A DNA stretch of 64,000 bases, from NCBI RefSeq assembly GCF_000411295.1, contig NZ_KE150421.1:745324-809323 (forward strand), read 5' to 3'. The notes under the pieces were generated by a model. That model had not been told where the DNA came from, searched no databases, and worked only from the letters and a program-made list of their open reading frames with translations. Within the stretch, counting starts at the first letter, position 1; each line of letters opens with the position of its first letter. This document shows positions 16,998 through 63,571 of this stretch, in pieces. The position numbers and the translations under genes are program-made. Source of the stretch: Paenisporosarcina sp. HGH0030 (GTDB lineage: Bacteria; Bacillota; Bacilli; Bacillales_A; Planococcaceae).

Positions 16998-17059
16998 AGC
17001 TTTGTTAATCGATGTTGTTGGTTGCTTATCGTACATTTGCGCACATCATTAAACAGCCC
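16998..17059. repeat. Terminator-associated repeat element, 62-bp copy
   Basis: Begins AGCTTTGTTAA (16998-17008), contains TATCGTACATTTGCG (17027-17041) and ends TTAAACAGCCCT directly against the pepF stop codon. It thus lies between the gene and its terminator. It contains the family core 14-mer CGCAAATGTACGAT (minus strand). Confidence 0.65.
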
Positions 17060-18760
17060 TTAAAGTGCTTTATCGTCAATTGAATTTAACCATTGTTCAA
17101 TTGGGCCGATTACGGATTCAACGCAACCATCTTCGAATGGTGAAATCAAATTGGCTTCTTTTACAAGTCCTGTAAACGACAGACTTCCTCCAATTTTACA
17201 TAAGTGTACATAATCTGCCCAAGCTTGCTCACGGTCTTCTAACGTTCGTTTGAAGAACTGGAATGCACAGATTTGAGCCAATGTATAATCAATATAATAG
17301 AACGGACTTTGATAAATATGGCCTTGTCGTTGCCAGAACCCACCTCTGTTTAAGTAGTCATTACCGTCATAATCACGGTGTGGCAAATATTTTTCCTCAA
17401 GCTCACTCCAAGCCTTTTTACGTTCAGCTGGCGATGCCTCCGGATTTTCATAAACAAAGTGTTGGAATTCATCCACAGCCACCCCATATGGCAAGAATTC
17501 AAGCGAACTGCTTAAATGGGAAAATTTGTATTTATCCGTATCCTCCTTAAAGAAGTTTTCCATCCATGGCCAAGTAAGAAATTCCATACTCATAGAATGA
17601 ATTTCACACGCTTCGTATGTTGGCCAATTATATTCAGGGATTTCAAAATGACGACTTGAATACACTTGGAATGCGTGTCCCGCTTCATGTGTGAGAACAT
17701 CTATATCTCCAGATGTACCGTTAAAGTTAGAAAAAATGAAAGGTGCTTTGTAATCTTCGATATACGAACAGTACCCACCGCTTGCTTTCCCTTTTTTCGC
17801 GACAAGATCCATCAAGTTATTGTCTATCATGAAATCAAAGAATTCACTTGTTTCCTTCGACAATTCATCATACATTTTTTTGCCACCATCTATGATCCAC
17901 TCCGGTGAACCTTTTGGTGTGGCATTTCCGGTTTTGTAATTGATTGATTCATCGTAGTATTTGAAATCATCTACCCCGATGCGAGCCTGCTGACGTTCTT
18001 TTAACTTGGATGCCAACGGAACAATGAAATCCTTGACCTGATCACGGAAGTTCATGACCATTTTCGCGTCATAATCTGTGCGAATCATACGATAATAGCC
18101 CAGTTCCACAAAGTTTTTGTATCCTAATGTACGGGCAATTTCCGTTCGAACTTTTACCAAATCATCAAAAATCCGATCGAGTTGCTGCTCGTTTTCTGCG
18201 AAAAAGCTAAAGTAGGCGTCTTTTGCCCGTTTCCTCATGTCACGGTCTGTAGATTCAGTGAATGGCTGCATCTGTGCCAAGGTACGCTCTTCATTTTCAA
18301 AATTGATTTTGGCAGACGCAATCAATTGTTGATATTCTGATGAGAGTTTATTCTCTTTTTGCATCATTGGAATGACTTCAGAAGAAAAAGATTTAATCTG
18401 TGCTTCCGCAATGGCAAATAATTGAGTGCCCCACTTTTCTTCCAACTCGTTACGGAAAGATGAGCTCACCAGTGACTTATAATATTTTGTAATTAAATCA
18501 TCTACTTTTGGACTTAGTTCATCGAAGTAGTCCCGTTCCGCTTTGTAAAACTCGTCATTCGTGTCAATTGAATTTCTGATGTAGACAATGTTCATCATCG
18601 TTCCCACATGGTTTCTGATATCATTGATTTGCTTCATTACTTCACTTTGTACTTCAACAGTTTCGGAGTCATTAAACTCAGTTAATGCTTCATTAAACTG
18701 CGTTTCAATCTGTTCGAATTCAGGTCGTGTATACGCAAATTCTTCAAATTTTGTTACCAT
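17060..18760 (-). CDS. M3 family oligoendopeptidase, PepF type
   Basis: A 566-residue zinc metallopeptidase. The active-site HEAGH lies in DIDVLTHEAGHAFQVY (about residues 355-370), followed by the third-ligand region YEACEIHSMSMEFLTWPWM. M3 oligoendopeptidases degrade cytosolic peptides of roughly 6-20 residues. ATG 18760 is chosen because AGGGGA is 9 nt upstream; the ATG three codons earlier touches the ribosome site. It is a monocistronic gene. Confidence 0.9.
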   Translation of the reverse strand: MVTKFEEFAYTRPEFEQIETQFNEALTEFNDSETVEVQSEVMKQINDIRNHVGTMMNIVYIRNSIDTNDEFYKAERDYFDELSPKVDDLITKYYKSLVSSSFRNELEEKWGTQLFAIAEAQIKSFSSEVIPMMQKENKLSSEYQQLIASAKINFENEERTLAQMQPFTESTDRDMRKRAKDAYFSFFAENEQQLDRIFDDLVKVRTEIARTLGYKNFVELGYYRMIRTDYDAKMVMNFRDQVKDFIVPLASKLKERQQARIGVDDFKYYDESINYKTGNATPKGSPEWIIDGGKKMYDELSKETSEFFDFMIDNNLMDLVAKKGKASGGYCSYIEDYKAPFIFSNFNGTSGDIDVLTHEAGHAFQVYSSRHFEIPEYNWPTYEACEIHSMSMEFLTWPWMENFFKEDTDKYKFSHLSSSLEFLPYGVAVDEFQHFVYENPEASPAERKKAWSELEEKYLPHRDYDGNDYLNRGGFWQRQGHIYQSPFYYIDYTLAQICAFQFFKRTLEDREQAWADYVHLCKIGGSLSFTGLVKEANLISPFEDGCVESVIGPIEQWLNSIDDKAL

Positions 18761-18896
18761 CCTAAACATCCCCTATTATTTTCAAATCGCAATCTAAGAA
18801 TTTTTAATCATTTGATTACGTCTACTCATAAATAGTTTACTATTAATTCATTTATGACAACAAGAAAAATTATTTTATTTAGAATGTTAGGTATAT

Positions 18897-19457
18897 TTAT
18901 TCTGACCACTGGTTTTGTTGTTCTTCTGTCGCTACTAACTGTAAGTCGTCAGCTGTTATTGTAATGATTTGATAGTCATGACGTTCTGCATATTTCATGG
19001 CCAGTTCTTTCATAAACTTTGGTGAACCTTCATTTTCCTCATCATAAATGATCAGTAGACCGTCAGAATTTCGTATTATGAATTTATTCTTTTCTATAAA
19101 TTGCCAAGGTCCTTCATAAGGTTTTTTCGTCACACTTGTTTGAAAATCAGCATTTGAACAAATCGTTTGATACATTTCTTTTTTGCTGTCATTCCAGTTC
19201 TTTTCTTGCTCAAGAAAAGGCGTAATGACTGCGTATTTTAAATGCGGGAATGATTGCTTCAAATCAATAACCAATTGCGCTGCCCACGTTTCGACCCCTA
19301 ACTGCCCGCTGACAATAACCCATTCCAGTCCATCGTCAATTAGTTCAAGAAGACGATTTTCTAATGCCTTCTTTATAAAACCTACGCCTGGATGTTTATC
19401 GTCGAAAACACCAATCTCGTGCTGTTTATAACCTGTAATCACTAATCTTTTAATCAT
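18897..19457 (-). CDS. ypsA: YpsA-like SLOG family protein (DUF1273)
   Basis: A 186-residue protein with Rossmann-like fold. RLVITGYKQHEIGVFDDKHPGVGFIKKALENRL, WVIVSGQLGVETWAAQLVIDLK and the later KPYEGPWQFIEKNKFIIRNSDGLLIIYDEENEGSPKF are hallmarks of YpsA. YpsA influences cell division in Firmicutes when overproduced; SLOG proteins bind nucleotide-type ligands. In many Bacillales ypsA neighbours gpsB, which is not in this window. It is a single gene. Confidence 0.88.
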   Translation of the reverse strand: MIKRLVITGYKQHEIGVFDDKHPGVGFIKKALENRLLELIDDGLEWVIVSGQLGVETWAAQLVIDLKQSFPHLKYAVITPFLEQEKNWNDSKKEMYQTICSNADFQTSVTKKPYEGPWQFIEKNKFIIRNSDGLLIIYDEENEGSPKFMKELAMKYAERHDYQIITITADDLQLVATEEQQNQWSE

Positions 19458-19548
19458 TTGAAAACCTCCGTGTCACTAACGTATCTATATAGTATTTTAG
19501 CATTTAATAGAAACAACAGTTTGGAGAACAACGTCCAGGTTATCAAAA

Positions 19549-19577
19549 AATAAAGACCCTCCAATTTCAGAGGGTCC
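19549..19577 (-). terminator. Rho-independent terminator of the permease gene
   Basis: Minus strand GACCCTC-8 nt-GAGGGTC (19555-19576) followed by TTTATTTTTT. Confidence 0.85.
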
Positions 19578-19589
19578 GTATATCATAGA

Positions 19590-20990
19590 TTATATTAAAA
19601 ACATGGCTACGATTGTTGTAACAACCAACCCGATTGTCACTGGAAGAAGGTTTCTTCTCGCAAGTTCAAATGGATCGACACCACAGATAGCTGCCGCTGG
19701 AATAAGAGCCCATGGAACCAACGTCCCTCCACCAACCCATATGGCTGCAATTTGACCAAGAGCGGTCAAAGTAGCTGCACCTGCACCGATTGCATTAGCA
19801 AAGATAGTGGCAACAGAACCTACCAGAGAAATACCCGAGAACCCCGAGCCATCCAAGCCAGTTATTGCGCCAACAATCGTCAAAGTAACTGCACCGACTT
19901 CTTTACTTAACGGAACGAGTGATGCAAGAGCTACACCAAGGTCGTTGACGATGCCATGTGAAGTCTTCGGCAATAGTTCACCGATTATTTTATTGAACCC
20001 TGCATCTCCCAGATAAAAGAATGCAGCAATCGGAATGACTGCACCGAACACTTTAAAACCGAATTGAAAACCTTCAATAAAGTAACTTGTAGCTTTTTCA
20101 AGCCCTTTATTTTTATGGCTGACTATTGTAATGAATAAGAGGATGAAAACAGATGTACCACCTATCAATGCGGTTGCATCGCCACCCTGTAAATCAAGAA
20201 TGGACATCGCAATCACGTCAAGTGCAAACAGGACAGGGATCAGGAGTGCAAAAAAGCGCTTTTGTCCTGCGGATAACAACGTTAATTGATGTTCAGTAGG
20301 TTCCGTTGTTGGCATGGCTGATATTCCTGTAGTTGCTGTTAACAATCCGGATTTTAAGTCTCGTTTCAAGAAATAAAACGCGGTAATGGTAGTCACGAGC
20401 CCCATCACAATAACTAGCGGAATACTTGCACTGATGACATCACCAACTGGAAGCCCCGCAGCATCCGCGGTCAATTTTGGTGCTCCTTGAATAATGAAAT
20501 CTCCTGATAACGCAATTCCGTGCCCGAATAAGTTCATTGCCATGGCAACCCCAAGTGCAGGCAAGCCTACACGAAGTGCGATTGGAAGTAATACAGCGCC
20601 CATCAACGCTACAGCTGGAGACGGCCAGAAAAACCATGAAATGACCATCATTAAGATTCCGATTGTCCAATAAGCCAATGCAGGGGTCTTAATGAGTTTC
20701 GAAAACGGTGAAATCATCACATCATTGATTCCGGTCGTTGTCAGAACTTTACTCATCGCGACAATAATTGAGATAACAAGTATCGTTGGCAATAATTCTG
20801 TAATCGCGAAAATGAAGCTGTTAAAAATACTACTGATTGAGCCACTCAAAGAGCCAGTGGCAGTAATGGCAATTAGAAAAATACCGACGATACTTACAAT
20901 GGTTGTATCACGTCTCATCACCATAAAGCCGATGATTAAAAAGATAAAAACGACATAAATCCAATGCAACGCTGTTAATTCAACACCCAT
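19590..20990 (-). CDS. GntP/IT-superfamily type permease
   Basis: A 466-residue integral membrane protein with about 12 hydrophobic segments. It shows the two-half arrangement of ion-transporter (IT) superfamily carriers with re-entrant motifs near GHGIALSGDFIIQGAP and GAGAATLTALGQIAAIWVGGGTLVPWALIPAAAICGVDPFELARRN. It most resembles gluconate/citrate-type secondary transporters, probably for an organic anion. Start 20990 has AAGGAGAAG at 9 nt; the longer frame is unsupported. The substrate is unknown. It has its own terminator and no co-transcribed neighbour. Confidence 0.7.
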   Translation of the reverse strand: MGVELTALHWIYVVFIFLIIGFMVMRRDTTIVSIVGIFLIAITATGSLSGSISSIFNSFIFAITELLPTILVISIIVAMSKVLTTTGINDVMISPFSKLIKTPALAYWTIGILMMVISWFFWPSPAVALMGAVLLPIALRVGLPALGVAMAMNLFGHGIALSGDFIIQGAPKLTADAAGLPVGDVISASIPLVIVMGLVTTITAFYFLKRDLKSGLLTATTGISAMPTTEPTEHQLTLLSAGQKRFFALLIPVLFALDVIAMSILDLQGGDATALIGGTSVFILLFITIVSHKNKGLEKATSYFIEGFQFGFKVFGAVIPIAAFFYLGDAGFNKIIGELLPKTSHGIVNDLGVALASLVPLSKEVGAVTLTIVGAITGLDGSGFSGISLVGSVATIFANAIGAGAATLTALGQIAAIWVGGGTLVPWALIPAAAICGVDPFELARRNLLPVTIGLVVTTIVAMFLI

Positions 20991-21110
20991 CAGATTTCTT
21001 CTCCTTTCTTGCATCCTTTTGTTTGAAGAGGGTATCCCTACTTCAAGATGTTCTATAGGATATGTGCAGCAAGAAAAGTGGTGTGAGGAATGCCCAAGAA
21101 TTTGAGAGAC

Positions 21111-21141
21111 AAAAAACACCGCTCAATTAAGTGAGCGGTGT
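21111..21141 (-). terminator. Rho-independent terminator of the aldo-keto reductase gene
   Basis: Minus strand ACCGCTCA-TTAAT-region-TGAGCGGT followed by GTTTTTTG, about 12 bp after the stop at 21153. Confidence 0.85.
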
Positions 21142-21152
21142 GATAAGTACTA

Positions 21153-21995
21153 TTAAAAATCAAAGTTATCTGGATCTGGACCTACACGTTTGTTTTCATT
21201 GAGTGAAGAAATTTTCTCCATTTCTTCTGCCGAAAGCTCAAAGTCAAATATAGATGCATTTTCAACAATACGATGTTCATTGATTGATTTTGGAATGGTC
21301 ACAACATCATTTTGAAGATCCCAACGCAAGATGATTTGTGCCACGGATTTTCCATGTGTCTCAGCAATTTCTTTAAGTTTCACATCATCAAGTAATTGCC
21401 CTTGCATAAGGGGTGACCAAGCTTCAAGTTGAATATTGTTTTGTTGGCAAAATGCACGCAGGTCTTCCTGACTCAATTTAGGATGGTATTCAACTTGATT
21501 GACCATCGGAACGATTGTTGCATCTTTCATTACATCTTTTAGGTGATGAATATGGAAATTACTTACTCCAATTGCTTTTACACGGTTTTCAGTATAGATA
21601 GTTTCAAGTGCTCGCCAAGTATCTTTATACTTTCCTTCTACTGGCCAGTGAATTAAGTATAGATCTAAGTAATCCAAGCCTAATTTTTTTAGACTTGTTT
21701 CATAAGCGTCCAAAGTAGTTTCGTATCCGAAATCTGCATTCCACACTTTAGAAGTGATAAATAATTCTTCTCGTGAAATACCGGTTTCTATCATTCCCTG
21801 ACGGATTCCTTCACCCACTCCTTCTTCATTTTGATACACTGCAGCAGTATCAATGCTGCGGTATCCCTTTAAGATAGCAGTCTTCACAGCTTCTATTACC
21901 TCTGTTCCTTCTTCAACTTTAAAAACGCCTAATCCGAACCAAGGCATTTTGATTCCATTATGTAAAGTTGTACATGCTTGCAAGTTATTTTTCAT
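21153..21995 (-). CDS. Aldo/keto reductase (YvgN-like)
   Basis: A 280-residue NADPH-dependent (beta/alpha)8 reductase. The catalytic tetrad positions are seen in SIDTAAVYQNEEGVGEG (Asp, Tyr), ITSKVWNADFG (Lys) and YLIHWPVEGKYKDTW (His). NADPH-binding residues are near IPKSINEHRIVENASIFDFEL. Closest known style is the YvgN/YtbE group, which reduces glyoxal-type and other reactive aldehydes. The 280-bp upstream region holds spaced ACTTGCATT repeats that could be a regulator site. Confidence 0.9.
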   Translation of the reverse strand: MKNNLQACTTLHNGIKMPWFGLGVFKVEEGTEVIEAVKTAILKGYRSIDTAAVYQNEEGVGEGIRQGMIETGISREELFITSKVWNADFGYETTLDAYETSLKKLGLDYLDLYLIHWPVEGKYKDTWRALETIYTENRVKAIGVSNFHIHHLKDVMKDATIVPMVNQVEYHPKLSQEDLRAFCQQNNIQLEAWSPLMQGQLLDDVKLKEIAETHGKSVAQIILRWDLQNDVVTIPKSINEHRIVENASIFDFELSAEEMEKISSLNENKRVGPDPDNFDF

Positions 21996-22133
21996 TTTTG
22001 TTATTCCTCCAGTGTCTACATATTTTACACTTTCCCATTCTCTCTTTTTTCATTTAACACTTCAATTAATTGACCTTACCAATATAATTTCCATGAATAA
22101 TAAACGCTCTTTTCCTTGAAAACACTGATTTGT

Positions 22134-22207
22134 TATACACTTGCATTATGCAAATTAATACAATGTAATATACTTGCATTTTACAACAATAATACAATAC
22201 TTGTTAA
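22134..22207. promoter_or_regulatory. Spaced direct repeats upstream of the aldo-keto reductase
   Basis: ACTTGCATT occurs at 22139 and 22172 (33 bp apart), with ACTTGTTAA at 22199. The first copy is part of the palindrome TTGCATTATGCAA (22141-22153) and each of the first two is followed by TAATACAAT. Helically phased spacing and dyad symmetry suggest a regulator site. The region 21996-22279 otherwise shows no gene. Confidence 0.4.
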
Positions 22208-22265
22208 ACTCAAGTAACTTACAATGAATATGTTTGTATTCCACAGCTATTACACATAAGAAAAA

Positions 22266-22279: not shown

Positions 22280-22332
22280 TGAACTGCCCCATAAAAGTTA
22301 GACACCAATCTAACTTTTATGGGGTGTTTATT

Positions 22333-27098: not shown

Positions 27099-27109
27099 TT
27101 CGATTTCTA

Positions 27110-27138
27110 GCCTTGCGCTTGCAAGGCTTTTTTATTTA
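27110..27138 (+). terminator. Rho-independent terminator of msrA
   Basis: Stem GCCTTGC-GCTT-GCAAGGC followed by TTTTTTATTTA. Confidence 0.9.
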
Positions 27139-27190
27139 GGCACGCTTATCGCACATTCGCGCTAGTCGCATGTTCTGCAAGAACTCACAA
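27139..27190. repeat. Terminator-associated repeat element, degenerate short copy
   Basis: Starts GGCACGC directly after the msrA terminator T-tract and contains TATCGCACATTCGCG (27147-27161), two mismatches from the family motif TATCGTACATTTGCG, then GCTAGTCGCATG. A degenerate copy of the element at 16998, 33322, 39493, 54299, 61997 and 63365. Confidence 0.5.
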
Positions 27191-27193
27191 ATA

Positions 27194-28384
27194 TCAAATG
27201 CTTTCTTTAACATGACCTTTATTTAAAAGGACCGTGACTATAAACATTCCTATAATTAAAGCGAGCAAGACAAAGAACGTCATTTGATGTGTTCCGCTCC
27301 AATCGTATAAAATACCGATTGCCAAAGGAACAAGCCCTCCCATGATAAAACCGCCTGTCTGAACCATTGCCGTCCATGCGTTCGCTTCTATTGCATCTGT
27401 CGTTTCATCGAGTGGTAGCAGTAATGCAAGCGGGAACAATACACCAAGTGTAAATCCAAGGAGAATCGCTGCCGGCCAAATCAGTGTCATATTCCCTGTC
27501 AATAACAAAACAATTCCAATGGTCCCGATAATGAGCGCGGAATAAATCCAAAATGATCGGATCGGAAATTTCTCAAGTAGTAAAGGGATGAAAATGTTTG
27601 TTACTATTTGTGCGACTGTCAAAACACTGATAACTGAACCAGCTTCAACCACATTAAATCCTAGTTCACTCGCTGCAGATGCAAGCCATGTCGTCAATGA
27701 GAAAAACAATGAAGCTTGAAAACCAAAAAACAATAAAATAAGCCATGCTCTCGTATTTGTCCACGGCGAACGGAATGATGCTGTCACATTTTCTCGTTCA
27801 ATCGGAACAGCGATTTCTTTTTCTGGCTTCATGGCAACGACCCAAACCAAGTATGCCAACAATGCTAACGAAGACCAGAAAGCTAGGGCATACTCCCATT
27901 CTTCACCGATCTTGACATATAATATACCGGTTAAACCAGCACTCAATGTTGCACCAGCACCCATACCTAGTGAATAGATTCCTATAGCTGAAGCAGTACG
28001 AGAAGGGAATTTTTCTTTAATTAATGATGATAAAATAGGTCCGATAATTGCAATGGCAACACCTATTACAAAAGCAGTCACCAATAGTGATACATAGTCA
28101 TTTAACCATGCACGTAATAAAGTAAGCACACCTATTAAGACGATTAATAAAGAAATGCCTCTTCTTTGTCCGAACTTATTCAGCCAGTGAACAGCCAATG
28201 GTGCGAATAATCCCATACAGATTACGGGAACCGCCGTTAACAAACTTACTTCACTGTTCGTCAAATTTAAATCATTACGGATTGTGTCCAGTAATGGCCC
28301 GATTGATGTAATAGCAGGTCGTAAATTTAAGGCAATCAAAAAGATGGCAATTAATAATGATGTCATTGATTTTTGGGAATTCAT
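27194..28384 (-). CDS. CynX/NimT-type MFS transporter
   Basis: A 396-residue major facilitator with 12 hydrophobic segments. The N-terminal LIALNLRPAITSIGPLLDTIRNDLNLTNSEVSLLTAVPVICMGLFAPLA is characteristic of the CynX/YycB cyanate/nitroimidazole-type group, and EKFPSRTASAIGIYSLGMGAGATLSAGLTG and LLFFGFQASLFFSLTTWLASAASELGF follow the family pattern. The substrate is unknown; members export or import small anions, or 2-nitroimidazole. No recognisable ribosome site decides the start beyond ATG 28384. Monocistronic. Confidence 0.82.
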   Translation of the reverse strand: MNSQKSMTSLLIAIFLIALNLRPAITSIGPLLDTIRNDLNLTNSEVSLLTAVPVICMGLFAPLAVHWLNKFGQRRGISLLIVLIGVLTLLRAWLNDYVSLLVTAFVIGVAIAIIGPILSSLIKEKFPSRTASAIGIYSLGMGAGATLSAGLTGILYVKIGEEWEYALAFWSSLALLAYLVWVVAMKPEKEIAVPIERENVTASFRSPWTNTRAWLILLFFGFQASLFFSLTTWLASAASELGFNVVEAGSVISVLTVAQIVTNIFIPLLLEKFPIRSFWIYSALIIGTIGIVLLLTGNMTLIWPAAILLGFTLGVLFPLALLLPLDETTDAIEANAWTAMVQTGGFIMGGLVPLAIGILYDWSGTHQMTFFVLLALIIGMFIVTVLLNKGHVKESI

Positions 28385-33321: not shown

Positions 33322-33816
33322 GACCCTGTTAAATGGATGGCTGTATATCGTACATTTGCGCTTGCCGCATGAGCCAACAAGTATGAAAACCACATACTTG
33401 CAGTCTCATTCTTCGAAAGATCTGATCCAGCGGTTACTCGTCGCAAATGAAATCTTCGTTTTATTTTAATATCGACAACATTAATTAATATGGTGTTCGA
33501 TAATCTGTTAATCATATTGTTAATAGTAAAGGAGTGCCACTACTGCGGTAAAACCCCGCAGTGAGTACAAAGGAACGAAGGCTAATAACGCCACCTCCCT
33601 GCTCCTGCGGTTACTCGTCGCAAAGAATAAGACTGCTCCTGCGGTTACTCGTCGCAAAGAATAAGACTGCTCCTGCGGTTACTCGTCAGAAAATGCAATT
33701 TTTGTGGCAACGCCTTCGCGACCAACATCCTGTTGGCCCGAGTAGGCTTGCTATTTCGTCCGCTGAAAGGGCACAGATTCCATTTTTAGACATCAACCGT
33801 GAAAGTTAACAAAGTC
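33322..33816. repeat. Terminator-associated repeat element, 495-bp copy with internal tandem repeats
   Basis: Left end GACCCTGTTAAA (33322), right end GTTAACAAAGTC (33805-33816), mutually inverted. It contains TATCGTACATTTGCG (33346-33360), a stem-loop with CAAGTATG/CATACTTG, and a 34-bp tandem repeat in 2.5 copies (see next entry). Its reverse complement matches the 224-bp copy at 54299 at both ends, with extra internal modules. The right end is next to the A-tract of the csp terminator. It contains short frames only, no gene. Confidence 0.75.
33601..33687. repeat. 34-bp tandem repeat inside the repeat element
   Basis: Copies start at 33601, 33635 and 33669 (third truncated), each GCTCCTGCGGTTACTCGTCG followed by CAAAGAATAAGACT. 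The same CTCCTGCGGTTACTCGTCGC core recurs near 53878 (slightly altered) and, inverted, at 63400-63460 (CGACGAGTAACC-GCAGGAG). It appears to be a mobile sub-module. Confidence 0.85.
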
Positions 33817-33820: not shown

Positions 33821-33860
33821 AAAAAAAAAGAAGAGGCAATCCGATTTCGGAAGCCTCTTT
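33821..33860 (-). terminator. Rho-independent terminator of the cold shock gene
   Basis: Minus strand AAGAGGC and GCCTCTT flanking TTCCGAAATCGGATT, followed by TTCTTTTTTTT. Confidence 0.88.
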
Positions 33861-39492: not shown

Positions 39493-39828
39493 AGCTCTGT
39501 CCTACTTTTTCTATTGGTTATCGTACATTTGCGGTAGCCGCATGTTTCGCATTGGCCCAAATGAATTGTTGTTGCGTGGCGTTTTTAACCTTCGTTCCTT
39601 TGCATGCTAGGCGCAAATGCACTCAAACAAATGATTGTTATTTATTATGAACATTGTTTTACAAAATTTAATGTTATTAACATAATGGGAATAAGCATCA
39701 CTCCTGCGGAAAAACGGTCTGGCGAGACCCCACAGTGAGGCACGAGTGAGGAGCTCGTCAGTTCGTCCGCGGAAAGGGCGCAGATTCCCAATTTTTTATA
39801 TAAATCAATTGTAAAAGTTAGCATAGCT
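39493..39828. repeat. Terminator-associated repeat element, 336-bp copy
   Basis: Left end AGCTCTGTCC (39493), TATCGTACATTTGCG at 39519-39533, right end AGTTAGCATAGCT (39815-39828), whose complement begins AGCTATGCTAAC. It has the GC-rich inverted module (CTCCTGCGGAAAAACGG / TTCGTCCGCGGAAAGGG) shared with 53680-53780 and 61860-61950. The right end abuts the A-tract of the DUF6501 gene terminator. No gene here. Confidence 0.7.
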
Positions 39829-39861
39829 AAAAACAAAAAAACCGATGAAAGATTCATCGGT
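39829..39861 (-). terminator. Rho-independent terminator of the DUF6501 gene
   Basis: Minus strand ACCGATGA-loop-TCATCGGT (39841-39861) followed by TTTTTTTGTTTTT. Confidence 0.82.
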
Positions 39862-40058
39862 TATTCAAAATATTCTTTATAAAAGCCACCGATGTGACCA
39901 CTATTATCTACAACGAAAATGAACTCTTCTGTTTCATTTTTTACTTCATATGATTTTCCGACAGTCAGTACATTCGATACAGAGAATTTTGCCGCGTTTG
40001 TATGAACGCAAGTGACTGTTTTAAGTGTAGGTGTCTCTTTCCAAACATTATGTAACAT
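39861..40058 (-). CDS. DUF6501 family small protein
   Basis: A 65-residue protein: TLKTVTCVHTNAAKFSVSNVLTVGKSYEVKNETEEFIFVVDNSGHIGGFYKEYFE. The Cys-His pair (VTCVHTNA) and the closing VDNSGHIGGFYKEYF are conserved among Bacillales members. Function unknown. ATG 40058 has GAGGAGAT in the upstream bases. The terminator stem begins within the stop codon. Upstream lies a 21-bp tandem repeat region. Confidence 0.85.
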   Translation of the reverse strand: MLHNVWKETPTLKTVTCVHTNAAKFSVSNVLTVGKSYEVKNETEEFIFVVDNSGHIGGFYKEYFE

Positions 40059-52215: not shown

Positions 52216-53571
52216 ATGTATGAAACTTCAAATCTAAAAGAAAAATGGTCACGGATGCTTAAAATTATTTTTCCGATTTTAGTGACTCAAGTGGCATTAT
52301 ACTTAATTACTTTTTTTGATATTTTAATGTCAAGCAGGTATGGGAGTGAGGACTTGGCTGGAGTTGCGGTAGGCTCCTCATTATGGATACCTGTTTATAC
52401 CGGACTGGCAGGTATATTATTGGCAATTACCCCTATTGTCGCTCAACTAGTTGGAGCGAAAAAAAAGGAAGAAGTCCGACTGGTTGTCCAACAAGGTTTA
52501 TTTCTGTCTCTTGGGTTGTCCGTCCTTACCTTAATTGTCTTATTTTTTGTTTTAGAACCGATCTTGCAATCTATGACATTGGAGAACCGTGTAGAAGAAG
52601 TTGCCAGTTCGTTTATAAAAGCGATTAGCATCGGCATTATCCCATTATTTGCTTACAATGTTTTGCGTTCGTACATGGACGCGCTTGGAAAAACAAGAGT
52701 TTCCATGATTATCACCTTATTATCTGCACCTATAAACGTGTTTTTTAATTATTTATTGATTTTCGGAAATTTTGGCTTTCCGGAACTGGGAGGGGCCGGA
52801 GCTGGTTATGCTTCTGCCATTACCTACTGGCTCATTTTTCTTATAGCAGTTGGAGTGGTACATAAACAAAAACCTTTTCAGCAATATGAGCTTTTCAGAA
52901 ATTGGCAACGTGTACAGTATTCAAAATGGCGCGATATCAGTAAAATTGGTGTTCCTATTGGTTTGTCAATCTTTGCGGAAACAAGTATCTTTTCTGCAGT
53001 TACGTTGATGATGAGTACGTATAGTACGGCAGTTATATCCGCCCATCAGATTGCTTTGAACTTTACCTCATTAATGTATATGGTTCCATTAAGCATTTCT
53101 ATTGGTACTACTGTCCTGGTTGGATATGAAGTTGGAGCGAAGCGCTTTAAAGATGCAAAAATTTATAGCTGGTTAAGTGTTAGTACTGCAGTAATGTTCA
53201 GTTTCCTCTCAGCATGTATTTTGTTCTTTTTCAAGGAACAAATTGCCGAATTGTATACTACAGACGAAACGGTCATCCAATTAACCATACAATTCTTTAT
53301 TTTTGCAGCACTATTTCAATTATCCGATGCGATACAAGCACCAGTGCAAGGAGCTTTACGAGGTTATAAGGATGTAAATGTTACATTCATCATGGCCATT
53401 ATTTCCTATTGGATCATTGGTTTGCCAGTAGGCTATCTCCTATCGAAGTTCACGGAATTTGGACCGTTTGGATATTGGATTGGTTTAATTGTTGGTTTAT
53501 CTGCCGGTGCCATCACTTTATCCTTAAGACTCATCCGTATTCAGCGCAAAAAAGATGCCGCGTCCCTTTAG
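52216..53571 (+). CDS. MATE family efflux transporter
   Basis: A 451-residue multidrug and toxin extrusion protein with 12 membrane segments. ILVTQVALYLITFFDILMSSRYGSEDLAGVAVGSSLWIPVYTG and the central SAPINVFFNYLLIFGNFGFPELGGAGAGYASAI, then ISIGTTVLVGYEVGAKRFKDAK are standard NorM-type motifs. It exports cationic compounds with Na+ or H+. ATG 52216 is preceded by AAGGTGAT. Its last codons overlap the first half of a 33-bp repeated terminator. Confidence 0.9.
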   Translation: MYETSNLKEKWSRMLKIIFPILVTQVALYLITFFDILMSSRYGSEDLAGVAVGSSLWIPVYTGLAGILLAITPIVAQLVGAKKKEEVRLVVQQGLFLSLGLSVLTLIVLFFVLEPILQSMTLENRVEEVASSFIKAISIGIIPLFAYNVLRSYMDALGKTRVSMIITLLSAPINVFFNYLLIFGNFGFPELGGAGAGYASAITYWLIFLIAVGVVHKQKPFQQYELFRNWQRVQYSKWRDISKIGVPIGLSIFAETSIFSAVTLMMSTYSTAVISAHQIALNFTSLMYMVPLSISIGTTVLVGYEVGAKRFKDAKIYSWLSVSTAVMFSFLSACILFFFKEQIAELYTTDETVIQLTIQFFIFAALFQLSDAIQAPVQGALRGYKDVNVTFIMAIISYWIIGLPVGYLLSKFTEFGPFGYWIGLIVGLSAGAITLSLRLIRIQRKKDAASL

Positions 53572-53584: not shown

Positions 53585-54180
53585 CAGCTTGTTGACAAGA
53601 GAATATTAATCAATATAAAAGTATAAAAATTCGCATTCTTATCTTTTGCACTCTATCGAAAAAATTTATGGTCGGCTATTTCTTTCGCTTTCCGTGGACG
53701 AAACGCTAGACTCCTCGGCTCAGCTGTTAATGACAGCTGAGCCTGTGGGGTCTAGCTTATTTCGTTTTTCCGCAGGAGTCTTCAGAAATTGCCGACCATC
53801 TTACTAATGAAATAATATGAAGAGATACGTAAACAGAAGCGAAATCTGTTGATTGGAGTGGAGGCGGCGGAAAACAACTGCTCCTGCGGTAACTCCTCGC
53901 AAAGATTAGGACCAAATTGCCTTTGGTCCCAATCTTTTCAGCGGGAACAGCACGAGCTGAAGGCCCCGCAGGAAACGAATAGTGCAAATGTAGTTTGCAC
54001 TATTTGTTTGCGACGAAGCTAGCGAAGCGATGCAGGAGCACCGGTTTTTCTAGTGACGAGGAGACTAAAGCCGTGCCCGCGAAACGCGTCCGCCGCAAAG
54101 GAAATCAACATTTTCTTGCATACGCTCTTTTTCATTAGTATACTTTTACATTCACTCTTTTTATTTTTTGTCTACAGTCT
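53585..54180. repeat. Composite GC-rich repeat insertion between duplicated terminator copies
   Basis: Three parts. 53668-53799: a nested inverted repeat with outer arms ATGGTCGGC-ATTTCT / AGAAAT-GCCGACCAT and a perfect 12-bp inner stem GGCTCAGCTGT / ACAGCTGAGCC (53717-53743). 53847-54110: a module starting TGTTGATTGG and ending AAATCAACA, containing CTCCTGCGG, GCACGAGCTGAAGGCCCCGC and GTGCCCGCGAAACGCGTCCGCC; I recognise this arrangement as a repeat frequent in Bacillales intergenic DNA. The rest is AT-rich filler. Open frames inside are not credible genes. Confidence 0.7.
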
Positions 54181-54257: not shown

Positions 54258-54298
54258 AAAGAACGGTTTTCAGCAATTCGAAAACGGTTCTTTTTTTT
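54258..54298. terminator. Terminator of the glg operon / plus-strand side
   Basis: AAGAACGGTTTTC / GAAAACGGTTCTT with one mismatch, followed by eight T residues on the plus strand and by TTCTTTTTGC on the minus strand. For the glg operon it lies beyond the repeat element at 54299-54522. Confidence 0.82.
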
Positions 54299-54522
54299 GG
54301 CTCTGTTAAGTTTTATGGTTGATTTTTTTATAAAAATTATAGGGAATCTGCTTCCTTTCCGCGGACGAACAGGCAAGCATCCTCGGACGAATAGGATGTT
54401 GGTCACGAAGGCGTTGTCGAAAAATGAGACCCACAAGTATGTGATTTTCATACTCGTTGGCTCATGCGGAACTTTCGGCTAGCGCAAATGTACGATTAAC
54501 TACCATATCGTTTAACAGAGCC
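54299..54522. repeat. Terminator-associated repeat element, 224-bp copy with perfect inverted ends
   Basis: GGCTCTGTTAA (54299-54309) at the left and TTAACAGAGCC (54512-54522) at the right are perfect inverted 11-mers. Inside: the module TTTCCGCGGACGAACAGGCAAGC, the stem-loop CAAGTATG/CATACT and CGCAAATGTACGAT (54483-54496). The left end touches the T-tract of the terminator at 54258-54298, and the right end is 8 bp from the glgA stop, so it is transcribed with the glg operon. No coding capacity, hence MITE-like. Confidence 0.85.
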
Positions 54523-58257: not shown

Positions 58258-60196
58258 TTGTATTGAATCCCCTTTGCCTTGTTTTTGTTTCTTTCATGAA
58301 TATAGCAATCCCTAGCGGCGGTACGGTTATTTCCAGGCTGCAGGGCTGATTATGAAGCGGGATCTTACTGGCATGCATCGGGGTGGAGTTCAGCTGTCCC
58401 GATCCGCCAAATGATGCGGCATCACTATTAAATGCTTCAAAATATTTCCCATTGGACGGAACCCCAATTTGATAGTTATGGTAAACATCGGCTGAAAAAT
58501 TACAAACAACAATGCAATAATCCCCCTTCCGTTTTCCTTTTCTCATAAAAGTAATCACGCTTTGTTCTGCATTGTCTGCATCAATCCATTGAAAGCCAGC
58601 TTGCTCATGATCCAGACGCCATAGGGAATTGGTTTCCTGATAAAATTTATTTAATTCTTTATAGTATCGATAAAAAGTGGAGTGAGCGTCAAAATCTAAA
58701 AGCTTCCAATCCATTTCTTGTCGGTATTTCCATTCGTCAAACTGCCCAAATTCACTACCCATAAATAAAAGTTTTTTTCCTGGATGCGCGAATAAATAGC
58801 CAAATAAGAGGCGTAAATTTGCGAATTTTTGCCAATAGTCGCCTGGCATTTTATTTACTAATGACCTTTTTCCATGAACCATTTCATCATGTGAAAATGG
58901 AAGGACAAAATTTTCCGAAAATGCATAGAAAAATGAAAACGTTAAAAGGTGATGATGCTTTGGTCGTTCGTTTATATCAAGCTTCATATATTTAAGTAAG
59001 TCATTTGACCAGCCCATATTCCATTTATAATTGAATCCAAGACCGCCTGTACTAGTGGGACTCGTAACCAGCGGCCATTCGGTAGCTTCCTCTGCCATCA
59101 TAAGGGCACCAGGATACTTCTGGAAAATAGTTTCATTTAACTTTTTCAAGAATTCGATTGCTTCAAGATTTTCTCCGCCACCATACTGATTCTTCAATTT
59201 TACAGGAAGTGGATTATCATGATTAAGATAAATCATTGACGAAACGGCATCAATCCGAAATCCATCAACATGATAGATATCCATCCAAAACATTGCGTTT
59301 GAGATTAGGAAGCTGATGACTTCGGGCTTGCTATAGTCAAAGCTATACGTTCCCCAGATTGGCCTCTCGGCGCGCATGGGATCTGCTGATTCGAAGAGAG
59401 GCGTTCCGTCGAACCTCCCAAGACCATGGCCATCTTTGCAAAAATGGGCAGGCACCCAATCAAGAATTACACCAAGGCCCTTCTGATGGCATTTGTCTAT
59501 AAAATACATTAATTGCTCAGGTGTACCGTATCTGCTAGTTACTGAATAATATCCAGTTATCTGGTAACCCCATGAACCATCGTACGGATGCTCCATGACA
59601 GGCATCAACTCAATATGTGTAAAGCCATTATCAATTGCATAATCGACTAATTCGTCTGCAAGTTCTTGATAACTATAAAACTCACCATTTTCTTTTTGTT
59701 TCCATGAAGCCAAGTGAACTTCGTAAATCATCATCGGTTTGTTGTAAATATCTTTCTTTATTCGCTGTGTCATCCATTTTTGATCTTGCCATTCAAATGT
59801 AGTTAAATTGTAGATGATAGATGCTGTAGCAGGTCGCTGCTCCGAATAAAAGGCATACGGGTCTGCTTTTAATTCCTTCCGCCCATCCGGTCCTGTAACC
59901 TCATATTTATAAATGTCTCCATGTGCAAGCTCGGGAATAAATAGTACCCATATTCCAGAATTAGATAAACGGTCCATTCGGTTCTGGGTACCATTCCAAT
60001 TATTAAAATTACCCACGACGGATACCTGCTTTGCATGTGGAGCCCAAACCGCAAAACGCACACCTTGAAAATCGTTCTCATGAATGATATGAGCGCCGAG
60101 CATTTTATAGCTTTCAAACAGTGTTCCTTCATGGAAAAGATATACATCAAAATCACTTGGGTATGGCCGGTTATTCAACTCAATAATTCCTTCCAT
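58247..60196 (-). CDS. glgB: 1,4-alpha-glucan branching enzyme
   Basis: A 649-residue GH13 enzyme: N-terminal CBM48-type domain ([21 protein letters not shown]), catalytic barrel with nucleophile Asp in [17 protein letters not shown], acid Glu in [14 protein letters not shown] and transition-state Asp in [17 protein letters not shown]-terminal all-beta domain. It makes alpha-1,6 branches. ATG 60196 is preceded by AAAGAGGTG. First gene of the glg operon. Confidence 0.95.
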
Positions 60197-60535
60197 TTCA
60201 ACACCTCTTTCATCCTATGATTATTTCTATTTATTTACCATTTCTTCTCTTTAATTATTCGCCATCTATCAAAAAACACCTTTAAATTGTTTAGATTTTT
60301 GTAATAATTAAGAATTTTAGACAAAATAAAAAATCCTTCATGGATTGGAGGATTTTTTATAACATTCTATTTTCGTGAACTCTTCTTATATTCGGGTAGC
60401 TGTACATTAGTTATTAGCTGAGTTCCCACACACCATACTTTTTCAAATTTTGAGAATGACTGATGTCAAAAGTGGATAAAAAATATATTATTTCTGTTCC
60501 AAAAGAAACTTTAAGTTTAAACCTGTATGTTAATC
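60197..60535. other. AT-rich intergenic region upstream of glgB
   Basis: It holds the terminator of the glycosidase gene (60327-60359) and, in 60197-60326, presumably the glg promoter, although no convincing consensus promoter is seen on the minus strand. Nothing else is recognised in 60360-60535. Confidence 0.5.
60327..60359 (-). terminator. Rho-independent terminator of the GH15-type gene
   Basis: Minus strand AAAATCCT-CCAATCCATG-AGGATTTTTTATTTTG. Confidence 0.82.
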
Positions 60536-61558
60536 TCAATCATTTCCTGTCAATTGTGAAGTAGGCATACTTATCATACGGTTTAAAAACAGATAGGAGA
60601 GGGAGACGGACCAAGCTAGTGGTGTGTTGCCATTTGGCACATTTTTCCCGCCAATATATAATTCAGGAACTGCCCAATTATTTGGTACGATTCGTTCCGT
60701 TTTATTTACATATTCATAAGCCTTATCATACATGCCCAGTTCAAAATAGCACAATCCTAGCCAAGGTAGTCCGAAGCACCATTCAGCTTCGCTTCCTTCG
60801 TTGTAATACTGATCGTTCTGATATCGAATACAGCCATATGTCCGCTCAAGGCGTTCGGAGACCAACTCGACTATCTTAAGCGCCGTTTTCCTTTCAACTA
60901 TCCGATACGGATAGATAAGTGAAAGCAGCGATAAGTCTGTTTCTTTCGTTTCACTTTCCCGTGGTAAAAGAAACCGCAGCGTCTCCTCACCTTTTTGAAT
61001 CAGTTCATCCTTAACATTAACGAGCATTTTCACCGCACGCAGGCCTGCCACGCATGCACCTACACTTGAAGCATGCAGTTCCATATTCTCTTCCCACATT
61101 CCATTATCCTTTGCCTGCCAGTATTGAAGACACTCTAGATAGTCAACAAGTTTCTGGACAATAGCGAGATCTTTGTCATCACGGATAACCTTTTGTCCGT
61201 GGCTCACACCCACCCCTACTCCCCATAAGAACGCTCCAATTGCATCATTCTGAGCATGCCCCCATTCTTGGCTCATTTCCTTTAATTCTGTGGAATACCG
61301 TGAGTGAATATATTCAAAAAGATAAACCGGTTTTTGTTCACGGTGAATGTCGATTTTCCATTCATAGGTTTTAAATAGATCAAATAATGCATGATATGCT
61401 TTTTCATACCGCTCAGATTGGCTTTGCAAAAAAGGCAACACCGTATATACGACATCACGTATCCAAACAAAATTGTAGTCCTTTGAAATACTGGCAGTGT
61501 AAGCACCGTTCGATAAGCGCATCCGATCTAAAACCTCAATTGCATTGTTGATTTTCAT
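60536..61558 (-). CDS. GH15-type glycoside hydrolase
   Basis: A 340-residue (alpha/alpha)6-barrel protein: YNFVWIRDVVYTVLPFL, EWGHAQNDAIGAFLWGVG, CLQYWQAKDNGMWEENMELHASSVGACVAGLRAV (acidic catalytic position) and VPELYIGGKNVPNGNTPLAWSVSL near the C-terminus, which fit glucoamylase/phosphorylase-kinase-like GH15. No signal peptide, so it is intracellular and could trim glycogen or related oligosaccharides. It is immediately upstream of the glg operon, separated by its own terminator. ATG 61558 follows AGGAGG. Confidence 0.8.
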   Translation of the reverse strand: MKINNAIEVLDRMRLSNGAYTASISKDYNFVWIRDVVYTVLPFLQSQSERYEKAYHALFDLFKTYEWKIDIHREQKPVYLFEYIHSRYSTELKEMSQEWGHAQNDAIGAFLWGVGVGVSHGQKVIRDDKDLAIVQKLVDYLECLQYWQAKDNGMWEENMELHASSVGACVAGLRAVKMLVNVKDELIQKGEETLRFLLPRESETKETDLSLLSLIYPYRIVERKTALKIVELVSERLERTYGCIRYQNDQYYNEGSEAEWCFGLPWLGLCYFELGMYDKAYEYVNKTERIVPNNWAVPELYIGGKNVPNGNTPLAWSVSLSYLFLNRMISMPTSQLTGND

Positions 61559-61996
61559 ATATTAAAACCTCCTATTAAATTCTACCTTTATGGTGATTGT
61601 TCACCATTTGCGTTTATTCTAGACAAACTTTTCCACCCAATATATAAAAGCGTTTCCATTATGCATTTAATAAGCCCACAAAAGAAGTTTAAATATTTAT
61701 ATTTTATGTAGTAGAATGTTAATTGGATAAGCAAGCAGACCAAATTCATCGAATAAACCGACTCAAATTTAACGTGCTCCTCCGGAATTTGGGACATGCG
61801 CAAATGTACGATAAACATCTAGAACGTTAAAGAAGACCAATTCAAAAAAGAGCAGAATCTGCTCCCTTTCCGTGGACGAACTGGCAATCCTTCTCGCTCG
61901 TCCCTCACTGTGGGGTCTTGCCTGCCCGTGATTCTGCCGGAGTGTCGCAGATTCCCTTTCAAGTTCCAAGAAACTTGTTTCATAAGCTATAGAAAA

Positions 61997-62086
61997 GCCC
62001 TGTTAAAGATTGCTTCTATTGATTAACGAGAGAGTGGATTTGCGCCTAGCGTAAATGTACGATAATCGGAAAGTAAGATTAGAGCC
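61997..62086. repeat. Terminator-associated repeat element, 90-bp copy
   Basis: Left end GCCCTGTTAAAG (61997-62008), right end TTAGAGCC (62079-62086). It contains CGTAAATGTACGAT (62050-62063), one mismatch from the family 14-mer. The right end is next to the A-tract of the CAP-protein terminator. Confidence 0.7.
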
Positions 62087-62100
62087 TAAAAAAATAGAAC

Positions 62101-62136
62101 AAAAAAAGCCATCTCAACGTATTGAGATGGCTTTTT
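62101..62136 (-). terminator. Rho-independent terminator of the CAP gene
   Basis: Minus strand AAAGCCATCTCAA-4 nt-TTGAGATGGCTTT followed by TTTTTG. Confidence 0.88.
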
Positions 62137-62139
62137 GTA

Positions 62140-62916
62140 TTATTTTTGAATGAATTGTTGTGTCCAGTAATTACCGTTTGCATCGTATCCAATACCAATA
62201 TGAGTATAAGTACCGTTCATGATATTTGCGCGATGTCCTGGTGATTCCATCCATCCTTTAACGACTTCAGCTGCCGTTTTTTGACCCATTGCGATATTTT
62301 CAGCAGCAGCCTTGTATTGAATGCCTTTAGCTTTCATTTGATCGAATGGGGATCCCATTGTTGGACTTGTATGTGAGAAATAGTTATTCTTGCTCATATC
62401 TGCTGATTTTGCACGAGCAGAGTCCATCAAAGCAGCATCAGTTGCTAGTGGTTTCAATCCTTCTTTTGCACGTTCTTGATTCGTCAATGTAAGAACTTGT
62501 TGTTCAATTGAAGAAACATTACCTGATGCTTGTGCTGCAGGAGCTGCCGGAGCTGCCGGTTTTTCAGCAGTTTGTGTATTTGTTGCTGGCTTTTGAGCCA
62601 CCGGTTTTGCAGCAGGTGCTGCAGGTGTTGCTTTTTGTGCAGCAGGCTTAGCTGTTTCAGCTGGTTTCTGTGCAACTGGGTTTTCTTGAGTAGTTTTAAA
62701 CCCTGCAGCATATAGCTGCGTATAAAGTTGATCTAACAACTGTTTTTCTATATTTGAAGACTCCACCGGTTTTGCTAGAGTACGTGCTGACCAGTTATTA
62801 GTATTCTGAGTCTGACACGTGGGGTTATTTGATGAAAATGAAGCTTCTGCGGTCGTACCTTGACTGAATGAGAACACCATAGCTCCCATTGTTAAACCTA
62901 GTAACATTTTTTTCAT
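62140..62916 (-). CDS. Secreted CAP/SCP domain protein, YkwD-like
   Basis: A 258-residue protein: signal peptide (MKKMLLGLTMGAMVFSFSQGTTAEA), an Ala/Pro/Lys-rich low-complexity linker (about residues 75-130), and a C-terminal CAP domain: VLTLTNQERAKEGLKPLATDAALMDSARAKSADMSKNNYFSHTSPTMGSPFDQM, then AAENIAMGQ and GWMESPGHRANIMNGTYTHIGIGYDANGNYWTQQFIQK. Bacterial CAP proteins are secreted and of uncertain function. A near-identical second copy starts at 63630. Confidence 0.88.
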   Translation of the reverse strand: MKKMLLGLTMGAMVFSFSQGTTAEASFSSNNPTCQTQNTNNWSARTLAKPVESSNIEKQLLDQLYTQLYAAGFKTTQENPVAQKPAETAKPAAQKATPAAPAAKPVAQKPATNTQTAEKPAAPAAPAAQASGNVSSIEQQVLTLTNQERAKEGLKPLATDAALMDSARAKSADMSKNNYFSHTSPTMGSPFDQMKAKGIQYKAAAENIAMGQKTAAEVVKGWMESPGHRANIMNGTYTHIGIGYDANGNYWTQQFIQK

Positions 62917-63166
62917 TTGTTATTCCCTCCTCTGCCACCTAGTCTATCGGCTAAATCTATGAAAAAAATACCCATTCATTTCCACCGTTTCCATCAGAAA
63001 TGAAAATGTACTCTCATAGTGGTTTACACGACATTAAAATTGCGTGGTCTTAGGATAATTACCATATCTTTCATTAAATTAGCTATTGACGGGCTGATAA
63101 ACAGCCTCATAAACCTTCTTTAACCTCTCTTTTTATACAGGAAAGAGGCTACTTCTATCGATTCTA

Positions 63167-63298
63167 TCAAAAGTAATATGTAATTATACAACTGTGCTTG
63201 GGTGAGTGAGCTCTTCTGATAATTGATTCATTTTCAATCAACTTAGTTCCTTGACGATATGGGAACAATGATTGAAAAGCTTGTATCATTTCATTCAT
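63167..63298 (-). pseudogene. Possible short remnant downstream of the lipoprotein fragment
   Basis: ATG at 63298 opens 43 residues starting MNEMIQAFQSLFPYRQGTKL and ending at 63167, seven bases beyond the stop of the fragment at 63305-63385. It may be a continuation of the same decayed locus or noncoding. No ribosome site is obvious. Confidence 0.25.
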
Positions 63299-63304
63299 GG
63301 CCGA

Positions 63305-63385
63305 TCACACACTTCCTGGAACTTGCCATTGCACAATTTGTTCTCCAATTTGCTCTTTACATGCCGCAAGAAAGAGTAGGGTCAA
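63305..63385 (-). pseudogene. Possible lipoprotein gene remnant
   Basis: On the minus strand from 63385: LTLLFLAACKEQIGEQIVQW..., ending at a stop at 63305. LTLLFLAAC looks like a lipobox at the end of a signal peptide. Its N-terminal part is missing and the site touches the repeat element at 63365-63571, so the gene may have been cut by that insertion. Confidence 0.3.
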
Positions 63386-63571
63386 AGGTAGTTTGACCCT
63401 ATTCTTTGCGACGAGTAACCACAGGAGCAACCTTTTAGGCGACGAGTAACCGCAGGAGAAGCACTTTGGAAGTGTGAGATCCACAACTATATGATTTTCA
63501 AACTTGTTGGCTCATGAGGAATGTGATGCTAGCGCAAATGTACGATATAAGCAGTAAAGTTTAATAGAGCC
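63365..63571. repeat. Terminator-associated repeat element, partial copy
   Basis: Contains GGGTCAAAGGTAGTTTGACCC hairpin, two CGACGAGTAACC-GCAGGAG modules (63410-63458), a stem-loop part (ATGATTTTCAAACTTGTTGGCTCATG), CGCAAATGTACGAT at 63533-63546, and right end TTAATAGAGCC (63561-63571). It lies about 25 bp before the stem of the second CAP terminator. The left end is not clear. Confidence 0.6.

What the first reader, a model, noticed from the sequence alone, without database searches (positions are those of the whole stretch)
16998..63571. A short repeat family that sits at rho-independent terminators
Seven intergenic copies share a 14-mer CGCAAATGTACGAT (17027-17041, 33346-33360, 39519-39533, 54483-54496, 61799-61813, 62050-62063 with one change, 63533-63546), plus a degenerate copy at 27147. 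Several have inverted ends like GGCTCTGTTAA/TTAACAGAGCC (perfect at 54299/54522). Copies at 27139, 33816, 39828, 54299, 62086, 63571 and 16998 end within 0-26 bp of a terminator T-tract or stem. This looks like a non-autonomous mobile element with terminator preference, comparable in site choice to group IIC introns though not related in sequence.
Basis: partly seen in the sequence, partly recalled or inferred. Interest (0 to 1): 0.8.

Follow-up and report, generated by a model that had tools for sequence, protein, structure and literature searches.

The report
Mobile DNA landing beside transcription terminators
These short repeats look like stripped-down copies of a bacterial jumping gene whose insertions often sit just past the stop signals that end gene transcription, a place where a new insertion is likely to do little harm.

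Summary
The 14-mer (6 exact window copies, 16 in the genome) is a subterminal stem sequence of one MITE subfamily in Paenisporosarcina. The wider family is defined by a 28-bp inverted end (consensus GGCTCTGTTAAACGATGCTGTTGATTTT) and an 8-bp A/T-rich target duplication. Window copy 27139-27217 has a perfect duplication, TTTATTTA, directly after a terminator. The same ends bound 1.6-2.5-kb insertion sequences in other genera, with an IS1595-family transposase that was not found intact in 9 Paenisporosarcina genomes. Proximity is sharp: 42 of 161 unique ends lie within 20 nt of an intrinsic-terminator hairpin, mostly 5-15 nt. Of 44 sites with good duplications 22 have one; in 37 testable sites 20 were seen against 5.3 expected in the same intergenic stretch. 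Empty sites in a sister strain (one case) and in 27 congeners (one locus) keep the terminator: targets, not cargo. A different MITE family gave 0 of 14. Half the sites lack a strict terminator; how the site is recognised is open.

The parts
27139..27217 (.). 79-bp element, degenerate 14-mer at 27148-27161 (-), perfect 8-bp target duplication TTTATTTA (27131-27138 and 27218-27225)
27109..27128 (+). terminator hairpin AGCCTTGCGCTTGCAAGGCT followed by TTTTTATTTA; target of the 27139 element
16998..17058 (.). about 61-bp decayed element, 14-mer at 17028-17041 (-); no target duplication left (2 of 8)
16959..16986 (-). terminator hairpin beside the 16998 element; on the - strand the element lies before the hairpin
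33322..33816 (.). 495-bp composite element with both ends, 14-mer at 33347-33360 (-), flanking 8-mers match 6 of 8
   Evidence: same locus occupied in the sister strain
33831..33859 (-). imperfect terminator hairpin with A/T tract next to the 33816 end
   Evidence: read; not listed by the scan nor by the rule
39493..39828 (.). 336-bp composite element, 14-mer at 39520-39533 (-), flanking 8-mers match 6 of 8
39840..39862 (-). terminator hairpin 11 nt from the 39828 element end
54299..54522 (.). 224-bp element with perfect 11-bp ends, 14-mer at 54483-54496 (+), flanking 8-mers match 5 of 8
54260..54291 (+). terminator hairpin with one mismatch and a T run, abutting the 54299 end
   Evidence: read; detected (-13.6 kcal/mol); not listed
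61775..61959 (.). composite remnant: 14-mer copy at 61799-61812 and a GC-rich core match 61844-61896; ends not defined
61996..62086 (.). 91-bp element, 14-mer with one change at 62050-62063, flanking 8-mers match 6 of 8
62103..62136 (.). bidirectional terminator-like hairpin next to the 62086 end
63400..63571 (.). element with right end at 63571 and 14-mer at 63533-63546; left end not identified
63595..63624 (.). bidirectional terminator-like hairpin next to the 63571 end

Best explanation
The repeats are MITEs: short non-autonomous derivatives of a group of IS1595-family insertion sequences. The transposase (supplied in trans, not found intact in this genome) acts on a roughly 28-bp inverted end beginning GGCTCTGTTAA and inserts the DNA into an A/T-rich 8-bp target that is duplicated. 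The preferred target is the T tract of an intrinsic transcription terminator or its downstream edge, usually 5-15 nt past the hairpin. The hairpin and much of the T run stay in place, so the host gene probably keeps its terminator while the element sits in DNA that is little transcribed. Shown here: ends, 8-bp duplication, linked transposase in related genera, terminator proximity, empty sites. Inferred: trans-mobilisation of the MITEs by that transposase; that the bias comes from target choice more than from selection afterwards; that termination is preserved. Not known: whether the transposase reads DNA sequence or shape (T tract after a GC-rich palindrome) or follows terminating RNA polymerase.
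For: Target duplication peaks only at k=8: 62% identity against 42% in re-paired flanks, 7 of 41 perfect against 0.4% expected, no shuffle of 20,000 reaching the observed sum. End profile: 196 hits against 2; stricter pattern in 57 of 200 genomes of the bacterial family, 0 in the reversed control. Facing end pairs enclose a roughly 350-aa transposase with perfect 8-bp duplications in L306, L307, L309, L320 and L323 (the frames of L306 and L320 are interrupted by a stop). Of 30 transposase loci scanned, 18 have a listed facing pair and 15 of these a perfect duplication; several are the same copies as. NCBIfam IS1595 model 212 bits against a cut-off of 75, Pfam PF12762 above cut-off. Terminator hairpin pointing at the element within 20 nt: 42 of 161 unique ends, 40 of them at 5-20 nt, background 0.05-0.09 per 100 nt beyond 40 nt. 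Random placement in the same intergenic stretch: 36 of 128 observed, null mean 7.4, maximum 17 in 2000. Element-wise: 22 of 44; testable 37: 20 observed, 5.28 expected, 0 of 100,000 simulations. T runs beside ends carry a hairpin in 34 of 69, other noncoding T runs in 55 of 462. The sister strain lacks a 382-bp element and has the terminator intact. The terminator hit by the IS in G032 is present in 29 of 29 congener loci inspected (of 39 congeners matched), 27 of them without any insert. Another MITE family: 0 of 14 ends.
Against: Half of the well-defined insertions (22 of 44) and most single ends (119 of 161) have no strict terminator; the rule misses bulged stems, but some sites are plainly only A/T-rich. 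Within Paenisporosarcina alone the element-wise count is 9 of 23 (my count). No intact transposase was found in the 9 Paenisporosarcina genomes (one 107-residue remnant in G004), so mobilisation is inferred from matching ends. Of 13 strain-specific candidates, counterparts were found for 9 and only one was a clean empty site; at G061 2815371 the other strain lacks both the element and the terminator beside it. Four IS1595 copies of other groups with identifiable ends (Niallia twice, ISAma5, ISOar1) had 8-bp duplications but no terminator by eye, and the Pontibacillus copy with the same ends has none by eye, so the preference is not a property of the whole IS1595 family. The control MITE family is small (14 ends, Fisher p 0.024). 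The T-run background comes from the own genome only, and the end set from six.
Confidence: 0.78

Rival explanations
1. Survivor effect only: the transposase inserts into any A/T-rich 8-mer, and copies remain where they do no harm, just behind terminators.
For: Insertions are mostly outside genes (36 of 161 flanks in an ORF by a crude ORF rule). A/T-rich 8-bp duplications, with copies inside genes and no mention of terminators, are reported for ISApl4, an IS1595/IS1016-group IS (PMC12561309, passages only).
Against: The peak is 5-15 nt past the hairpin and falls to near background by 30-40 nt; random placement in the same noncoding stretch does not reproduce it. Another intergenic MITE family shows 0 of 14.
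Confidence: 0.12
2. The target is simply a T tract or A/T-rich run; the hairpin is incidental.
For: 35 of 69 ends with a T run have no strict hairpin, and all ends taken together show T enrichment at -8 to -13.
Against: Hairpins are far more common at T runs beside ends than at other noncoding T runs (34 of 69 against 55 of 462, Fisher p 8e-12), although the background runs are from one genome and not matched for position behind genes.
Confidence: 0.2
3. The terminators belong to the elements, which would be mobile terminators.
For: Terminators touch many element ends.
Against: Hairpins lie outside the duplications and differ in sequence from site to site; empty sites in G000 (one) and in 27 congeners (one locus) hold the terminator without the element.
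Confidence: 0.02
4. A REP/BIME-like structured RNA element that stabilises mRNA 3' ends, kept for its function.
For: Two copies folded give strong hairpins (z -6.2 and -5.4), and many copies lie behind genes.
Against: No consensus structure and so no covariation over 29 aligned half-elements (full-length copies were not tested); inverted ends and 8-bp duplications are those of a DDE transposon; no Rfam family at gathering score in the window. A secondary use is not excluded.
Confidence: 0.06

Closest known systems
IS1595 family insertion sequences (NCBIfam NF033547; Pfam PF12762)
   Same: Transposase-bearing relatives carry this transposase, GG-starting inverted ends, 8-bp A/T-rich duplications and, in some, passenger genes.
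   Different: Terminator preference; four copies of other IS1595 groups looked at by eye did not show it.
MITEs of bacterial insertion sequences (for example the Correia, RUP and bcr1 types; names recalled)
   Same: Short, noncoding, multi-copy, inverted ends, target duplication.
   Different: This family has its own ends and interior, and often sits at terminators.
Group IIC introns (recalled)
   Same: Insert next to intrinsic terminators.
   Different: Retroelement ribozymes; here a DDE transposase and 8-bp duplication; no Rfam match at gathering score in the window.
TnGBS / ISLre2 elements that insert near promoters, and Tn7 at the end of glmS (recalled)
   Same: DDE elements with a transcription-related safe site.
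   Different: Other transposase families, other signals.
REP/BIME/REPIN repeats (recalled)
   Same: Intergenic palindromic repeats behind genes.
   Different: To my recall those have no target duplication or IS-type ends; both are present here.

Membership tests
MITE | short, without transposase, several copies in a genome | tested here: met
   51 blastn places in the own genome; paired units of up to 900 bp, too short for the 1-kb transposase gene; no transposase match in the own genome
MITE | terminal inverted repeats | tested here: met
   28-bp profile, 196 hits against 2
MITE | target-site duplication of fixed length | tested here: met
   8 bp; perfect in window 27139-27217; 5 or 6 of 8 in four other window copies and lost in one
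MITE | ends shared with an autonomous element | tested here: met
   IS1595-type units with the same ends in other genera; none found in the own genus
IS1595 family (transposase-bearing relatives) | IS1595 transposase with DDE domain | tested here: met
   NF033547 212 bits against cut-off 75; PF12762 57.8 and 54.7 bits against cut-off 27
IS1595 family (transposase-bearing relatives) | 8-bp A/T-rich duplication | tested here: met
   perfect in 15 of the 18 loci with a facing pair listed (30 loci scanned)
IS1595 family (window copies) | mobilised by an IS1595 transposase | not testable with these tools
   no intact transposase found in 9 Paenisporosarcina genomes; inferred from ends
Group IIC intron | group II ribozyme structure | tested here: not met
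   no Rfam match at gathering score in the window
REP/REPIN | paired REP palindromes without target duplication | tested here: not met
   8-bp duplications and IS-type ends present
REP/REPIN | linked RAYT protein | not tested
   no RAYT search was made

The most novel reading that the evidence does not exclude
A subgroup of IS1595-type DDE transposases in Bacilli selects intrinsic terminators as its target, possibly by following RNA polymerase at its release point, so that terminators act as a genome-wide landing pad for insertion sequences, MITEs and passenger genes.
Probability: 0.35. Interest if true: 0.8.

Novelty: new variant of a known kind. Interest (0 to 1): 0.64.

Why it matters
Terminator-directed insertion is, to my recall, a trait of group IIC introns and not described for a DDE insertion sequence of this family. 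None of the listings of ten paper searches showed a report of it, but they cover open-access text only and I read passages of just three papers. If true it gives a simple safe-harbour rule for how IS1595-type elements, their MITEs and passenger genes spread without breaking genes, and a testable case of target choice tied to a transcription signal.

Tried and rejected
Partner search: IS1595 domain (PF12762), ISL3 (PF01610) and IS6 (PF13610) families in the 9 genus genomes gave no partner with matching ends. GGCTCTGTTAA resembles IS6 ends (recalled), but no such ends were found near the four IS6-type matches. The first cargo units examined held no ORF that I recognised as a transposase of this family. 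A structure search on 29 aligned half-elements predicted no pairs. Other IS1595 groups on plasmids were compared by eye only: 7 regions fetched; one (Pontibacillus) has the same ends; of the six others, 4 had identifiable ends with an 8-bp match (Niallia twice, ISAma5, ISOar1) and 2 gave no pair.

Weak points of the counts: the end profile was trained on the loci it was then scored on. Duplicate and orthologous ends were removed before counting (247 to 161 by shared 14-mers; 109 to 90 by shared 12-mers; 63 to 41 pairs). In one search, 33 of 161 ends had fewer than 10 noncoding positions and were left out of the null; seven of 44 sites were left out of the expected count. Terminators pointing away from the element also peak near the ends (22 within 20 nt); many terminators are bidirectional. 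In one search only 14 unique ends were found in 30 loci of 56 places. An earlier count said 15 OV554 stretches; one search lists 12 (13 matches), and the report uses 12.
Full report
What is there. The 14-mer is real and far above chance in the window (9 places with up to 2 mismatches against 0.63 expected, maximum 3). The own genome (3.52 Mb) has 16 exact copies, 6 of them in this 64-kb window (Poisson 6.5e-7), and 51 blastn places for the 224-bp copy 54299-54522. Named records place the family in Paenisporosarcina: of 27 stretches with the 18-mer GCGCAAATGTACGATAAA in the genome collection, 12 are from Paenisporosarcina sp. OV554 and 4 from P. indica, and these 16 were read; the other 11 are single hits in unrelated taxa, not inspected, a number near what chance would give. 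In 61 genomes searched with the 224-bp copy, 9 had a match. Matches to the half bearing the 14-mer were listed only in this genus; the GC-rich core (query about 57-118) also matched two other genera of the family (G021, G011), and one genome of another family matched the left end (G045).

Anatomy. Compact copies in OV554 are about 181 bp: an inverted end, a subterminal inverted repeat with the 14-mer on one arm and a matching CGCAAATGTAC-type stretch on the other, and a central palindrome. The one folded (L090) gives a long hairpin (z -6.2), the window copy 54299-54522 also folds well (z -5.4). No consensus structure was found over 29 aligned half-elements. The 28-bp ends were profiled and found 196 times against 2 in reversed sequence in the fetched loci; with up to 3 mismatches the own genome has 60 end matches against 5 in the control. 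Paired ends are flanked by an 8-bp duplication: identity of flanking k-mers rises only at k=8 (62% against 42%), 7 of 41 pairs are perfect, and none of 20,000 shuffles reaches the observed sum. In the window the cleanest case is 27139-27217 with TTTATTTA on both sides; the other window copies with two ends match 6, 6, 6, 5 and 2 of 8.

Transposase-bearing relatives. No IS1595 domain was found in the 9 genus genomes, and a protein query found only a 107-residue remnant in G004. A stricter end pattern is present in 57 of 200 genomes of the bacterial family and 0 times in the reversed control. Fetched units of about 0.7-2.0 kb between facing ends have mostly perfect duplications, and five of them (L306, L307, L309, L320, L323) carry a transposase of up to about 350 aa, interrupted by a stop in L306 and L320. 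Pfam and NCBIfam name the two proteins tested (from L309 and L323) as IS1595 transposase. The transposase query matched 49 of 261 genomes. Of 30 transposase loci scanned, 18 have a listed facing pair 1.6-2.6 kb apart, and 15 of these show a perfect 8-bp duplication; L336, L338 and L340 do not (several are copies already seen). Some units carry passengers: a GNAT acetyltransferase (L306), a small lipoprotein-like ORF without family match (L307), a RibD_C protein with what looks like a transposase remnant (L312).

Terminators. Terminators were called with one fixed rule (hairpin of at least 5 pairs with at least 3 GC pairs, fold energy at most -6 kcal/mol, T-rich tail). Among 161 unique ends from six Paenisporosarcina genomes (two of one species), 42 have a terminator pointing at the element within 20 nt: 2 at 0-5, 15 at 5-10, 20 at 10-15 and 5 at 15-20 nt, against 0.05-0.09 per 100 nt beyond 40 nt; 22 further matches within 20 nt point away from the element. 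Placing the same ends at random noncoding positions outside the element gives 7.4 on average (maximum 17 in 2000 runs) against 36 of 128 observed. Taking only elements with a duplication of 7 or 8 of 8, from all genomes, 22 of 44 unique sites have a terminator at the target; in 37 with enough noncoding sequence 20 were seen and 5.28 expected, and none of 100,000 simulations reached 20. By my count of that list, 13 of 21 sites outside Paenisporosarcina and 9 of 23 within it are positive. In an overlapping set of other-genus ends, 18 of 90 have a terminator within 20 nt. As a contrast, a MITE family with other ends (GGGCACTGAAAAA) in G021 has 0 of 14 (p 0.024).

Empty sites. G061 is a strain of the same species, with a median of 99.2% identity over shared pieces. 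Of 13 candidate differences, counterparts were found for 9. Its 382-bp element at 1331249-1331630 is absent from G000, where the hairpin, T tract and single target copy are present. At another site G000 and G061 carry different repeat inserts beside the same terminator; at a third (G061 2815371) G000 lacks both the element and that terminator, which decides nothing. In G032 a 1,689-bp IS sits in the T tract behind a gene that I read as pycA from its sequence. The joined flanks matched all 40 genomes searched, G032 among them. Of 29 congener loci inspected (of 39 congeners), 29 have a hairpin-plus-T-run terminator of -17.5 to -28.4 kcal/mol there, 27 without any insert and 2 with an insert in which these ends were not found.

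Mechanism. The duplication starts at or just behind the T tract, so hairpin and much of the T run remain upstream of the element. I infer that termination survives and that this makes the site tolerable. The narrow peak argues that the transposase itself prefers the site. T runs beside ends carry hairpins much more often than other noncoding T runs (34 of 69 against 55 of 462), so a bare T tract is probably not the whole signal, but half the insertions show no strict hairpin. Whether DNA shape or terminating RNA polymerase is read cannot be told from sequence.

Relation to what is known. The transposase-bearing elements meet the IS1595 features tested here, and the window copies meet the MITE features. 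An IS1595/IS1016-group IS in print, ISApl4, is described with 8-bp A/T-rich duplications and copies inside genes, and the word terminator does not occur in that paper's main text (PMC12561309, passages only). PMC9208149 (passages only) reports IS1595 over-represented between genes but says nothing on insertion into terminators in the passages shown. PMC3281130 (passages only) had nothing relevant. The listings of ten paper searches showed no report of terminator targeting by this family; most subscription papers are not held, and the original IS1595 description was seen only as an entry in a reference list.

Noticed in passing
window 27194-28384 (-): The last codons and the stop of this ORF lie inside the 27139-27217 element, so the insertion set the C-terminus of the convergent gene.
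   Followed up: no
L231:1994-2927 (G006): A 934-bp unit with these ends and flanking TTTAAATA copies carries an ORF matching the N-terminal part of mraY (below that model's cut-off) and no transposase, perhaps a captured gene fragment.
   Followed up: partly
L232:1835-2433 and 6249-7001 (G005): Two units with these ends carry small membrane- or lipoprotein-like ORFs and no recognised transposase.
   Followed up: partly
L240, L083 (OV554): Near-tandem arrays of the compact element with a period of about 238 bp.
   Followed up: no
L052, L060, L067 (G021): The GC-rich core TTTCCGCGG...CCAACACGATGTTGG is shared with elements that have quite different ends (GGGCACTGAAAAA); the core seems to occur in different MITE types.
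   Followed up: partly
window 62092-62391 and 63582-63881: Two 97% identical stretches holding a terminator and a gene 3' end, each with a different element copy beside it.
   Followed up: partly
window 53659-54110: A separate cluster of GC-rich repeats, one matching the GCGACGAGTAACCGCAGGAGC type, between 33-bp copies at 53552 and 54181.
   Followed up: no
G061 C1:2649778 and G000 C1:1517651: What appears to be the same element is 649 bp in one strain and 297 bp in the other, so interiors change length between strains.
   Followed up: no
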